NCBI GenBank assembly: GCA_024644235.1
Contig: JAHELJ010000007.1
Coordinates: forward strand, 89,249 to 153,248
Direction: 5' to 3'
Source: Lewinellaceae bacterium
GTDB lineage: Bacteria; Bacteroidota; Bacteroidia; Chitinophagales; Saprospiraceae
Length of the DNA: 64,000 nt
The position numbers and the translations under genes were made by a program. The notes below the pieces were generated by a model. That model did not search any database, was not told the origin of the DNA, and saw only the letters and a list, made by a program, of their open reading frames with translations. Below are positions 51,190-54,441 of the stretch, piece by piece (within the stretch, counting starts at the first letter, position 1; each line of letters opens with the position of its first letter).

Positions 51190-51220
51190 TTGCATCTATA
51201 AGAGGGTAACAATATACTTG
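51190..51220 (+). promoter_or_regulatory. Candidate promoter of the Septu-like operon
   Basis: TTG (51190-51192) and TATACTTG (51213-51220, seven of eight matches to TAnnTTTG) are 20 nt apart, the spacing expected for Bacteroidota. The implied leader to the ATG at 51268 is about 40 nt. Confidence 0.4.
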
Positions 51221-51267
51221 TGTAAGCAGACTAATAAGCGTATTGCCCTCACCACAATTAAAGCCAA

Positions 51268-53454
51268 ATGATCAAACACCAACGATCTCCAACTCCCGCT
51301 TTCTTCAATGAAGACATCATATTCAAGCTCAGGGATCAAGAGTCTCAGTTCTACCGAGAAGAACAGAATGAACGAATGCAAAAACGCTCTCGAACCTTGG
51401 AAGAAAATGTTTCGGTCGAAGAGGAGCTTACCCGAATCCTATTAGACGAATTTCATGGAAAATGTGCCATCTGTGAACAAGATCTCGGTCGCGAGGATTT
51501 AGTTGCAATCACCCATCGATTTCGACCCCGCCGGTCAGCCACCAACCTGGATGGCACTATCGATATGGATCATTACAACTGGTATACTTATCAATGGGAG
51601 AACCTATACATCGCTTGTCAATTCTGCAACGAACATAAATCGACCTTGTTTCCAGTAAAAGGAATCCGGGCGGAGTCAACTGTGCCAATTTCTGAGGTTG
51701 ATTCAAATGAAAAAAGACTAATTATCGATCCCTGCGACGATGATCCGGAGGATCATTTTTATTACGATCAACAAGGTCGAATTCACAGCCCAACTATCAC
51801 CGGTCAGCACACGATAGAAGTCTACCAGCTAAACAGACCTCACCTGCTGACCCGACGAAGAGAAATCATCGAGAGCAGTGAGCTGATCAAGGCCAAAACC
51901 CGAACTAAGGATGGAGTCAAAACCATCGAATTTCTCGTTAACAAGGATGGCTTGGATAAATCGAATGAGTTTCTCGGTTTGAAACGATACCTGATCAAGC
52001 TTCGGTCTCGCAATGAACCTGACTTGTTGATCGGTTTTAACGAGGAAGAAAAAGAAGAGCTTCTGAACTTGGAGGTTTTTGTAGAGCCTACTTCAGAAGA
52101 GGCTGTGATAGATGCACCGCATGACCCCAGCACATCAGAGGAATCGATTGTCCAGAGGAAGGTGGAATTTGTAGAATTACTTTCGATCGATATAAAGAAT
52201 TTCAAGAACATCACCGATCTCTACTTTGAATTTCCTAAGACCCATCCCACCAAAGGAAACTGGACGTTCTTCCTTGGTGAAAACGGATCCGGAAAGAGCA
52301 GCATCCTTCAGGCTATTGCCCTTTGTCTGATCGGCCAACCGACCAGGAACGAACTCAAGCTTGAACCAAAGGATTTTCTGCAGCGGGGAAAGAGAAAATG
52401 TGAAGTTCAGCTTCAAACAAACGAAGGAAAATATGAAATCACAATTACAAAAGACTCAATCACTGGCACCGAAGCTGCTACTTCCACTTTCCTATTGGCT
52501 TACGGCTCTACCAGGCTCATGGCCCAGCAAGGAGTACCTGAACAGGATCATACAAAAAGAACAAAGCCTGGCAACTTGTTCGATCCTACGGCAGGACTAG
52601 TCAACGCTAAGAAATGGCTTTTGGCCCTTGATAAGAATTCCTTCAACATGATGGCAGTAGTGCTCAAAGAGGTTTTGAATCTCTCCCGGGAGCAGACTGA
52701 AAAGGTGCAGGAAGGCAGCATAACCCGTAAGGGCGGTGAGATATTTTTCACCGAGCCGGACAAAGTCCGGCAGGAGTTGCATACACTGAGCGACGGATAT
52801 AAGATCCTCATCGCTCTGGTATGTGACATTTGCCGCTCCATCAGTGAAGTGCTTAGTTCACAGCAGAAAGATCGCAAATATCCCCATCAGGACTTTGAAG
52901 AAGTTCATGGCATAATAATCATCGATGAGTTAGGCACCCATTTGCATCCGCGCTGGAAAATGAGAATAGTTTCAGCGCTGCGCAAAGCCTTTCGCAGAAT
53001 GCGATTTATTGTAAGCTCCCATGAACCACTCTGCCTCAGAGGCCTCGAGGACGGAGAAGTAATGGTGGTGGAATACGAGAACAAGGATGTTCAAATGCTC
53101 GAAAATCTCCCTGATCCTTCAAAATATCGCATCGACCAGATTCTCACTTCACCCTTCTTCGGTCTCTACTCAGTGGTCGACCCTAAAGAGGGTCAGGTGT
53201 TCTACGACTATTACCGACTACTCCGCAAAGGAGATGATCTCAGCCCTGCCGAAGCTGAACAACTGGCTTCGCTGTCGCAACAAGTACGTAATTATAACAT
53301 CATGGGCAACAGCTTACGTGAAGAACTGGCCTACTACGCAGTCGATAAAATTCTGGCAGAGCAAGCTGACAAACAAATTCGTTGGGATGAGCTTAAAGAA
53401 CATACCAAGAAAGCAGTGGAGAAGCTGTGGGAGGAGTATGAGTCCGATCTCTAA
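51268..53454 (+). CDS. Septu-like fusion protein: N-terminal PtuB-type HNH nuclease plus PtuA-type AAA/ABC ATPase
   Basis: A 728-residue protein. Residues 60-200 form an HNH module: CxxC at 66-69 (CAICE), His83 (ITHRFRPR), Asn112 (YQWENLYIAC), CxxC at 117-120 (CQFCN), then RLIIDPCDDDPEDH (150-163). This order is the PtuB signature. Residues about 300-600 are an SMC/RecF-like ATPase as in PtuA: Walker A GENGSGKS (337-344), signature LSDG (507-510), Walker B IIIIDELGTHLHP (549-561) and switch His in VSSHEPL (585). In Septu, PtuA and PtuB are normally separate proteins that degrade phage DNA together. Here a nuclease domain is fused to the ATPase, and another PtuB-like gene follows 12 bp later. 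Confidence 0.85.
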   Translation: MIKHQRSPTPAFFNEDIIFKLRDQESQFYREEQNERMQKRSRTLEENVSVEEELTRILLDEFHGKCAICEQDLGREDLVAITHRFRPRRSATNLDGTIDMDHYNWYTYQWENLYIACQFCNEHKSTLFPVKGIRAESTVPISEVDSNEKRLIIDPCDDDPEDHFYYDQQGRIHSPTITGQHTIEVYQLNRPHLLTRRREIIESSELIKAKTRTKDGVKTIEFLVNKDGLDKSNEFLGLKRYLIKLRSRNEPDLLIGFNEEEKEELLNLEVFVEPTSEEAVIDAPHDPSTSEESIVQRKVEFVELLSIDIKNFKNITDLYFEFPKTHPTKGNWTFFLGENGSGKSSILQAIALCLIGQPTRNELKLEPKDFLQRGKRKCEVQLQTNEGKYEITITKDSITGTEAATSTFLLAYGSTRLMAQQGVPEQDHTKRTKPGNLFDPTAGLVNAKKWLLALDKNSFNMMAVVLKEVLNLSREQTEKVQEGSITRKGGEIFFTEPDKVRQELHTLSDGYKILIALVCDICRSISEVLSSQQKDRKYPHQDFEEVHGIIIIDELGTHLHPRWKMRIVSALRKAFRRMRFIVSSHEPLCLRGLEDGEVMVVEYENKDVQMLENLPDPSKYRIDQILTSPFFGLYSVVDPKEGQVFYDYYRLLRKGDDLSPAEAEQLASLSQQVRNYNIMGNSLREELAYYAVDKILAEQADKQIRWDELKEHTKKAVEKLWEEYESDL

Positions 53455-53466
53455 AATCTAATAGTC

Positions 53467-54441
53467 ATGATCAAGCTCAATCGAATCAAGAAACCAGATT
53501 ACCTGGATGATCAAAAGGTCCTAGACGAAACAGAGGAAGCAAAAAAGCTATTTGATCCGGCAGTCAACGAAACAACTTCACTTAAGGATAAAAAGAAGAA
53601 GTTTAAGTACAGCCGCTATCGCGACGACCGGGTGAAGGATGCCTTAAAGGAAATGTGCAACAATAAATGTGCCTACTGCGAAAGCACATTCTTACATGTT
53701 TATTATGGTGACATTGAACATTTTCGACCCAAAAAATTTGTTGGCACCAAGAGCGATCCTAGGGTCCCCGGTTATTACTGGCTGGCAAACGACTGGGATA
53801 ATCTCCTTCTTTCCTGTCTTTTTTGCAATCAGGCAAAAAAGAATGAGGTGGTGCAAAATGGACAATTGGTGGAGATCACAATCGGGAAGCAAAATCAATT
53901 TCCTTTGAACAATCAGGCGCTTTACGATACTCCTCGTGCACATCAGACCTGGAGTAATGGAGGGAGTACAGCAGACGAGGGTGCCAGGCTTATCATCGAC
54001 CCATGTAAAGACGATCCTGAGAAGCATCTTCAGTATCACAAGGAAGGCATGGTCCTACCCAAAAAAATAAAACAGCCAGGTCAGGACATTGATGATCCCA
54101 AAGGCGCTAAATCTATCGAGGTATTTGCCCTGCAACGTATCTACCTGGTTCAGGAAAGGAAGAAACGATTGATTGATCTCGAGCTGCAGCTCACCACAAC
54201 CCGTGAAGTATTTAAGAAACTAAATGAGACGAACTTCAATAGCAATCCGGTGATTTCAAGCTATTACACTGACAGATTGAAAGTAGAGGTAGATAAACTT
54301 TTCTATTTCACCCACCGATTAATGAACTACAGTGCGATGTGCAGGCAATTTGTCTATGCTTTCCTCGAGGATGAACTCAACAAAACTAAAGCAGCCATCC
54401 GCAATGCGGAAAAAAAGGTACATGAAAAAATGGATGCGTGA
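53467..54441 (+). CDS. PtuB-like HNH endonuclease of the Septu-like operon
   Basis: A 324-residue protein, second gene of the operon. Cys68-Cys71 (CAYCE), His85 (GDIEHFRPKKF), Asn112 (NDWDNLLLSC) and Cys117-Cys120 with Asn121 (CLFCNQAKK) make a complete zinc-supported HNH site. RLIIDPCKDDPEKH (174-187) matches the block in the fused nuclease upstream. The C-terminal 110 residues are helical and charged and probably contact the ATPase. The key residues have nearly the same spacing as in the fusion protein, which points to an old duplication. No frameshift or lost residue is seen, so both nucleases look active. Confidence 0.85.
   Translation: MIKLNRIKKPDYLDDQKVLDETEEAKKLFDPAVNETTSLKDKKKKFKYSRYRDDRVKDALKEMCNNKCAYCESTFLHVYYGDIEHFRPKKFVGTKSDPRVPGYYWLANDWDNLLLSCLFCNQAKKNEVVQNGQLVEITIGKQNQFPLNNQALYDTPRAHQTWSNGGSTADEGARLIIDPCKDDPEKHLQYHKEGMVLPKKIKQPGQDIDDPKGAKSIEVFALQRIYLVQERKKRLIDLELQLTTTREVFKKLNETNFNSNPVISSYYTDRLKVEVDKLFYFTHRLMNYSAMCRQFVYAFLEDELNKTKAAIRNAEKKVHEKMDA

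What the first reader, a model, noticed from the sequence alone, without database searches (positions are those of the whole stretch)
51190..54441. Septu-like defence operon with two PtuB-type nucleases, one fused to the ATPase
The first protein (728 aa) has a PtuB-type HNH domain (CxxC 66-69, His83, Asn112, CxxC 117-120, IIDPCxDDPExH) in front of a PtuA-type ATPase with intact Walker A, LSDG signature, Walker B and switch His. The second protein is a complete stand-alone PtuB-like nuclease whose motifs have nearly the same spacing. Known Septu systems, as I recall them, pair a PtuA ATPase with one separate PtuB nuclease. The fusion plus extra nuclease suggests a variant in which two different HNH modules act on one ATPase scaffold, perhaps as a heteromeric nuclease or with one domain in a control role. 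A candidate promoter precedes the operon.
Basis: partly seen in the sequence, partly recalled or inferred. Interest (0 to 1): 0.85.

Follow-up and report, generated by a model that had tools for sequence, protein, structure and literature searches.

The report
Septu variant with a dead nuclease
This looks like a two-gene bacterial anti-virus system of the Septu kind in which the motor protein carries its own extra copy of the nuclease, a copy that appears to have lost its cutting residue here and in more than half of the relatives examined yet keeps its shape-forming residues, which points to a built-in structural or control part rather than a second blade.

Summary
The two genes are real. ORF1 (51268-53454, 728 aa) is an HNH domain fused to a PtuA-type ATPase; ORF2 (53467-54441, 324 aa) is a stand-alone PtuB nuclease. 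The fusion is no accident: PADLOC's PtuA1 model PDLC00292 spans it end to end. I collected 48 distinct fusions, window included, with hosts in Bacteroidota, Pseudomonadota and Bacillota; 47 have a PtuB directly downstream. Their ATPases separate from 26 canonical PtuAs on one branch.

In four alignments His83 falls in the acidic column and Arg84 in the catalytic-His column of [D/E]-H-F-R-P (two others shift it by a one-residue insertion). All 47 partner PtuBs and all 72 canonical PtuBs compared keep that His; only 20 of 48 fused domains do, 14 with [D/E]H. Yet all 48 keep the four Cys and the Asn. The tree needs at least 10 changes of this state, and in His-less Rhizobium copies dN/dS is 0.07-0.10.

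Best reading: a Septu variant in which ORF2 cuts and the fused HNH is a pseudonuclease serving assembly, substrate binding or restraint. Phage defence is untested. I found no description of this architecture in the open-licence papers searched.

The parts
51268..53454 (+). ORF1, HNH-PtuA fusion protein, 728 aa
   Evidence: (PDLC00292 PtuA1, E 5.5e-181, full length)
51268..51891 (+). Fused PtuB-like HNH domain (residues 1-208), predicted pseudonuclease: four Cys and N112 kept, catalytic His replaced by R84
   Evidence: searches align the site differently
51517..51519 (+). Codon of R84, the position that holds His in 47 of 47 partner and 72 of 72 canonical PtuBs
   Evidence: read
51892..52167 (+). 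Low-confidence linker between the HNH and the ATPase (residues 209-300)
   Evidence: pLDDT under 50 at 207-228, 260-263 and 267-299
52168..53451 (+). PtuA-type ABC/RecF-like ATPase domain (residues 301-728)
52276..52299 (+). Walker A, GENGSGKS (residues 337-344)
   Evidence: K343 in 48 of 48
52786..52797 (+). ABC signature LSDG (residues 507-510)
52909..52935 (+). Walker B region GIIIIDELG (residues 548-556)
   Evidence: D553 and E554 each in 47 of 48
53020..53022 (+). Switch histidine H585
   Evidence: 47 of 48
53467..54441 (+). ORF2, stand-alone PtuB HNH nuclease, 324 aa, the predicted cutting subunit
   Evidence: PDLC00319, 1e-80; TIGR02646, 58.4 bits over the cut-off 52.15
53716..53721 (+). 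Catalytic E84-H85 of ORF2
   Evidence: read
51190..51220 (+). Possible Bacteroidota-type promoter, TTG-N20-TATACTTG; unverified
   Evidence: read; consensus recalled, not tested; the sigma-70 scan gives no support

Best explanation
A Septu-type two-gene system. The PtuA-like ATPase of ORF1 assembles into a dimer-based oligomer and, on a phage-induced signal, licenses the one competent HNH nuclease, ORF2 (PtuB), to cleave nucleic acid (phage DNA or host tRNA; the target is unknown here). The second, PtuB-derived HNH domain fused in front of each ATPase is a pseudonuclease in this operon. It keeps the Cys4 zinc-ribbon residues and the PtuB-type LNRxxLxxxR segment but has lost the metal-site acid and the general-base His. 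It most likely serves as a built-in PtuB-like subunit that fixes stoichiometry, holds or presents substrate, or restrains ORF2. Shown: the homologies, the conserved gene order, loss of the catalytic residue on most alignments, purifying selection on His-less copies in Rhizobium, PtuA- and PtuB-like predicted folds. Inferred: oligomer, trigger, target, zinc binding, and the exact role of the pseudonuclease.
For: PtuA and PtuB profile matches. Foldseek: the ORF2 model's 8 PDB matches with E <= 0.001 are PtuB-sized chains of retron I-A complexes; the 50 listed of the ORF1 model's 398 such matches are chains of PtuA, PtuAB or retron I-A entries. Gene order: 47 of 48 fusions have an adjacent PtuB (L032 read). 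Catalytic His: 20 of 48 fused (21 if the window is aligned as), 47 of 47 partners, 72 of 72 canonical PtuBs; [D/E]H 14 of 48 fused; with N121 as well 7 of 48. Four Cys and N112 in 48 of 48, so also in 28 of 28 His-less rows. At least 10 state changes on the ATPase tree, 6 forced by well-supported branches. dN/dS of the His-less fused HNH 0.07-0.10 in three Rhizobium pairs, against 0.05-0.07 for the ATPase and 0.08-0.12 for the partner. Solved Ec78 PtuB has EHFRP at the aligned site. In Septu EcB88 H75 and N91 of PtuB are needed for defence (passages of PMC13096335).
Against: No assay; inactivity is read from sequence. 20 of 48 fused domains keep the His, so inactivity is not a family-wide rule. 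Two alignments place the window's H83 in the His column by a one-residue insertion. The ORF1 model is only moderate (pLDDT 73.3, pTM 0.48; query TM-scores to PtuA 0.30-0.40), no coordinates were available to check the site, and no complex could be predicted. In the pair L082/L083 the fused HNH evolves faster (dN/dS 0.31), as does the partner (0.47). Some fused copies are broken: L009, L017 and L200 are split between frames, L023 keeps only the last part of the HNH behind an IS630 transposase, L210's ATPase is cut short.
Confidence: 0.66

Rival explanations
1. Both HNH domains cut: the fused domain is an active nuclease, perhaps with H83 as base and a shifted loop, and works with ORF2 as a heteromeric nuclease that makes paired nicks.
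For: 14 of 48 relatives keep [D/E]H and 7 also keep N121; N112 and the four Cys are invariant; two alignments put H83 in the His column.
Against: Four alignments put R84 there. Six other fusions have H in the acid column followed by R or L before F-R-P (three of them are near-copies). From Cys69 to Phe85 the window aligns with the intact L004 without any gap. 28 of 48 lack the His, with R, Q, L, N, Y, F or T in its place. Even with H83 as base the residue before it is Thr, not Asp/Glu.
Confidence: 0.15
2. The fused HNH is a decaying leftover of a gene fusion with no function.
For: Repeated loss of the catalytic residue. One locus, L023, keeps the ATPase frame and PtuB but has lost roughly the first 146 residues of the HNH behind a transposase gene; L009, L017 and L200 are split between frames.
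Against: dN/dS 0.07-0.10 in the His-less Rhizobium copies; four Cys, N112, P155, L188 and R197 invariant in 28 of 28 His-less rows. Caveat: my filter for fusions required an HNH match, so a clean in-frame loss would have been filed as canonical PtuA; the 26 of 72 canonical PtuAs put in the tree fall on the other side of one branch.
Confidence: 0.07
3. The pair is the effector of a retron (Septu type II / retron I-A).
For: Closest solved relatives by sequence include retron Ec78/Ec83 PtuAB. Two fusion relatives have a reverse-transcriptase gene nearby on the other strand: L012 (Priestia plasmid) and L202 (Rhizobium plasmid, beyond a transposase).
Against: The only RVT_1 match found in the window's genome lies on contig C23, not C203; NCBIfam retron PtuA/PtuB equivalog cut-offs are missed (ORF1 96.2 of 500; ORF2 65.8 of 150).
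Confidence: 0.04
4. A function other than phage defence, for instance plasmid restriction or a housekeeping role.
For: No experiment here; relatives occur on plasmids.
Against: Sparse distribution (3 of 395 sampled genomes of the window's phylum hold a full-length fusion), occurrence on plasmids and on contigs of the viral collection (L082-L085), homology to tested Septu and retron effectors.
Confidence: 0.08

Closest known systems
Septu type I (PtuA + PtuB), e.g. E. coli PtuAB (8eea, 8ee4)
   Same: ABC-type PtuA ATPase next to an HNH PtuB; ATPase motifs and the H-N-H of the stand-alone PtuB intact; the ORF1 model matches solved PtuA, the ORF2 model solved retron PtuB.
   Different: Canonical PtuA has no HNH; here each ATPase carries a PtuB-like domain, so two HNH copies occur per operon and one is degenerate. 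The reported E. coli stoichiometry is PtuA:PtuB 6:2 (table in PMC12948488, passage); that of the fusion is unknown.
PADLOC PtuA1 models PDLC00292, PDLC00288, PDLC00291
   Same: Profiles 726-773 positions long that match ORF1 end to end: the fusion is already in the database under 'PtuA1'.
   Different: The printed model descriptions say 'AAA ATPase domain' and name neither the HNH nor its degeneracy.
Retron I-A effector PtuAB (Ec78, Ec83; Septu type II)
   Same: PtuA/PtuB folds; PDB titles give PtuA:PtuB 2:1 and 4:2.
   Different: Works with a reverse transcriptase and msDNA; no reverse transcriptase lies beside the window operon.
ptuXYZ operon (PMC11980606)
   Same: A PtuA-like ATPase in another multi-gene defence arrangement (passages).
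   Different: Its presumed nuclease PtuX has a DUF262 domain and is said not to resemble PtuB.

Membership tests
Septu type I | PtuA-type ATPase with Walker A, signature, Walker B and switch His | tested here: met
   (E 5.5e-181); PtuA folds
Septu type I | Adjacent PtuB HNH nuclease with intact H and N | tested here: met
   ORF2: PDLC00319 1e-80; E84, H85, N112, N121 present; partner profile aligned to solved Ec78 PtuB at EHFRP
Septu type I | PtuA as a separate ATPase without nuclease domain (textbook architecture; PADLOC's PtuA1 models do not require it) | tested here: not met
   N-terminal HNH fused in ORF1; hence a variant, not a plain member
Septu type I | PtuA:PtuB oligomer (6:2 in E. coli) | not testable with these tools
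   no complex prediction available
Septu type I | Protection against phage | not testable with these tools
   needs an assay
Septu type II / retron I-A | Reverse transcriptase gene next to ptuA/ptuB | tested here: not met
   neighbours; the only RVT_1 match found is on another contig
NCBIfam retron PtuA NF041760 / PtuB NF041761 | score over the curated cut-off | tested here: not met
   ORF1 96.2 of 500; ORF2 65.8 of 150
TIGR02646 HNH subfamily | score over 52.15 bits | tested here: met
   ORF2 58.4 bits; ORF1 fails at 35.5
Catalytic HNH (His-Me) nuclease, applied to the fused domain | general-base His preceded by Asp/Glu | tested here: not met
   H83-R84 where partners have E-H; searches align H83 as the His, but then Thr82 stands in the acid's place
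Catalytic HNH (His-Me) nuclease, applied to the fused domain | zinc-ribbon Cys and middle Asn | tested here: met
   C66, C69, C117, C120, N112

The most novel reading that the evidence does not exclude
A separately evolving Septu subtype, spread over at least three phyla, in which every ATPase carries a covalently attached PtuB pseudonuclease that occupies the PtuB site left empty in the asymmetric PtuA2:PtuB1 unit. It sets the nuclease dose or gates the one live PtuB: a pseudoenzyme-regulated nuclease machine whose regulator has lost catalysis independently many times.
Probability: 0.3. Interest if true: 0.72.

Novelty: new variant of a known kind. Interest (0 to 1): 0.52.

Why it matters
Why PtuA and PtuB assemble with fewer nucleases than ATPases, and what keeps PtuB silent before infection, are open points for Septu and retron-Septu (my judgement; the main structure papers were not readable here). 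A natural subtype that welds a seemingly dead PtuB to every ATPase is a ready tool: structures and domain deletions would show whether the second PtuB copy is structural, substrate-binding or inhibitory. It also warns that labels such as 'PtuA' or 'AAA family ATPase' hide a second HNH domain, and that motif reading alone can mistake a pseudonuclease for a nuclease.

Tried and rejected
Retron membership was considered and rejected. A one-off fusion or assembly artefact was rejected because 48 distinct fusions exist, in 44 clusters at 70% identity. Neutral decay of the fused HNH was judged unlikely but some copies are broken. Monophyly of the fused HNH domains on the short HNH tree is unresolved: the free tree needs 2 changes, and one clade is not rejected (AU p 0.645). 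Papers: 8 searches answered listed no description that I could recognise of an HNH-PtuA fusion with a separate PtuB; this covers open-licence PMC text only, and most listed papers were seen as listings. Passages seen: PMC13096335, PMC8565338, PMC11555353, PMC12948488, PMC12198126, PMC11980606, PMC12137116, PMC10440598, PMC12345164. Li 2024 and Wang 2025 on PtuAB structure were not held and were not read.

Rows dropped: of 58 fused ORFs found, 49 were distinct, and L017 was left out because its frame is interrupted, leaving 48. L210 stays in although its ATPase is cut short; it is the one row without a partner. L009, L023 and L204 never entered as fusions because their ATPase ORF has no HNH match, and L200 is the same split as L017; one search shows HNH pieces in other frames or truncated for L009, L017, L200 and L023, and none for L204. 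From the canonical set I took out by hand 13 loci that are pieces or broken copies of fused loci, or cut by the record end (L002, L003, L009, L017, L023, L183, L189, L195-L198, L200, L204), leaving 72 pairs; 26 of these (E <= 1e-40) went into the ATPase tree. Canonical PtuBs had to match my HNH profile, which may favour intact motifs. The HNH tree leaves out near-copies. A script failed part-way and was rerun. In one search the two site residues were read leftwards from the F-R-P anchor, which makes the window H-R; one search repeats the columns without that anchoring.
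Full report
What is there. ORF1 (51268-53454, 728 aa) and ORF2 (53467-54441, 324 aa) lie 12 bp apart on the + strand. Upstream are a calcineurin-like phosphoesterase, a 106-aa protein without Pfam match, and an SPFH protein on the other strand; downstream, on the other strand, is a membrane protein that reads like a sodium:solute symporter (recalled, not searched). ORF1 matches PADLOC PtuA1 model PDLC00292 end to end (E 5.5e-181) and, at its N-terminus, PtuB1 models (2.2e-33); ORF2 matches PtuB1 PDLC00319 (1e-80). 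Pfam sees AAA_21/AAA_23 in ORF1 and HNH in ORF2. ORF2 passes TIGR02646 (58.4 against 52.15 bits) while ORF1 does not (35.5).

Fold. AlphaFold2 models (ORF2 pLDDT 80.6, pTM 0.80; ORF1 pLDDT 73.3, pTM 0.48) were compared with the PDB by Foldseek. ORF2 has 8 matches at E <= 0.001, all PtuB-sized chains of retron I-A complexes. Of ORF1's 398 such matches the 50 listed are all chains of PtuA, PtuAB or retron I-A entries, with query TM-scores of 0.30-0.40. A profile of 15 fusions also matches, by sequence, PtuA chains (up to 139 bits) and PtuB chains (up to about 50 bits). The linker (residues 209-300) is modelled with low confidence, and the three long C-terminal helices of ORF2 (225-323) have no equivalent of that length in the fused domain.

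The arrangement is conserved. tblastn in plasmids gave 89 records, 29 covering at least 80% of ORF1; phages gave 7 partial matches, none covering 80%. These 48 include the window and fall into 44 clusters at 70% identity. Of the 48, 47 have a PtuB ORF next downstream; L210, the exception, has an ATPase cut short. Named hosts include Rhizobium, Sinorhizobium, Gluconobacter, Klebsiella, Janthinobacterium and Priestia, Kordia, Pedobacter, Pseudomonas, Pseudoalteromonas and Neobacillus, that is Pseudomonadota, Bacillota and Bacteroidota (taxonomy lines). It is sparse: a full-length fusion in 3 of 395 sampled genomes of the window's phylum, own genome included; 2 of 248 in its order; 5 of 349 in the phylum of a Pseudomonas genome, counting the seed genome and the cut-short L210; 3 of 195 and 8 of 249 in two families. 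These draws overlap and used different E-value limits.

One lineage. In a quick tree (SH-aLRT only) of 48 fused ATPase domains and 26 canonical PtuA proteins (those with E <= 1e-40 among 72 canonical pairs), fused and canonical are separated by a single branch with support 99. On the shorter HNH tree (110 rows, 42 fused) the fused domains need 2 changes, and a single clade is not rejected (AU p 0.645).

The catalytic site. In stand-alone PtuB of these operons the motif is E-H-[FYW]-R-P. E84 and H85 (ORF2 numbering) are present in 47 of 47 partner PtuBs (48 aligned, less the L017 copy, which appears frame-shifted); H85 is present in 72 of 72 canonical PtuBs with E in 69 and D in 3. Retron Ec78 PtuB aligns with EHFRP at the same place, and in Septu EcB88 substitutions of H75 or N91 of PtuB abolished immunity (passages of PMC13096335). 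In the fused domain the His column holds H 20, R 15, Q 6, L 2, N 2, Y 1, F 1, T 1 (n = 48); the acid column holds D or E in 26; [D/E]H occurs in 14 and [D/E]H plus N121 in 7. The window copy reads T82-H83-R84-F85-R86-P87. Alignments put H83 in the acid column and R84 in the His column. Those put H83 in the His column by opening an insertion at R84; then 21 of 48 would keep the His, with Thr82 in place of the acid. I prefer the first: six other fusions show H then R or L before F-R-P without any insertion (three are near-copies), the window and L004 align without a gap from Cys69 to Phe85, and the predicted strand ends at R84 in the fused domain as it ends at H85 in ORF2.

Dead but kept. The four Cys, N112, P155, L188 and R197 are present in 48 of 48 fused domains, hence in 28 of 28 His-less ones. 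The tree needs at least 10 changes between His and no-His, 6 forced by well-supported branches; since partners and canonical PtuBs all have the His, repeated loss is the simplest reading, although change counts alone cannot tell gain from loss. In the three Rhizobium copies that lack the His, dN/dS of the fused HNH is 0.072, 0.101 and 0.100, against 0.063, 0.068 and 0.049 for the ATPase and 0.093, 0.117 and 0.078 for the partner. Another His-less pair, L029/L214, gives 0.14, 0.11 and 0.18 with near-saturated dS; L011/L199 is saturated in the HNH; L082/L083 is looser (0.31 fused HNH, 0.47 partner). Against a firm constraint: broken copies exist. L009, L017 and L200 have the HNH and ATPase in different frames, and L023 keeps only the last part of the HNH next to an IS630 transposase gene.

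Mechanism. Shown: the homologies, the gene order, loss of catalytic residues in many copies and selection to keep the domain in the pairs tested. From the literature: E. coli PtuA:PtuB is 6:2 (table in PMC12948488, passage), and PDB titles for retron PtuAB give 2:1 and 4:2, so PtuB is outnumbered by PtuA. Targets differ between systems: nicked phage DNA, or tRNA-Tyr (passages). Inferred: here ORF2 is the blade and the fused pseudonuclease is a fixed PtuB-like subunit that shapes assembly, holds substrate or restrains ORF2. Which of these three cannot be told from sequence; frequent replacement of His by Arg (15 of 28) would fit retained phosphate binding, a weak hint only.

Novelty. The fusion is already inside PADLOC's PtuA1 models, so the genes are not new to databases. 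The two-HNH architecture, its separate clade and the recurrent loss of the catalytic His in the fused copy were not described in the papers I could search (open-licence PMC only, mostly seen as listings). Hence a new variant of a known kind.

Noticed in passing
L004:164-1504, L005:161-1504, L213:3723-5063, L216:167-1504, L030:3152-4504: In 5 of 48 fusion loci (upstream flanks of many are short) a gene of about 446 aa overlaps the start of the fusion by 4 bp; the five are homologues, and one of two scanned reaches Pfam NurA at 20.9 bits, just under the cut-off of 21. Possibly a third component, a nuclease; four are from the window's class, one from Pedobacter.
   Followed up: partly
L013:6760-8571, L015:6602-8308, L201:5958-7664, L205:6105-7811: A gene annotated as patatin-like phospholipase follows PtuB within 13-34 bp in three alphaproteobacterial loci and an unannotated look-alike in L201; L200 has one too beside a split version. 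Possibly an added effector.
   Followed up: partly
L012:6455-7468; L202:7208-8079: A reverse transcriptase gene lies on the opposite strand beyond the fusion and PtuB on a Priestia plasmid (retron St85 family by annotation) and on a Rhizobium plasmid.
   Followed up: no
L009, L017, L023, L200: Broken plasmid copies: HNH and ATPase in different frames (L009, L017, L200) or most of the HNH missing next to an IS630 transposase (L023); L017's nuclease also appears frame-shifted.
   Followed up: partly
G000:C23:1007-1633 (L219): The only reverse-transcriptase match found in the window's genome, near the start of another contig.
   Followed up: no
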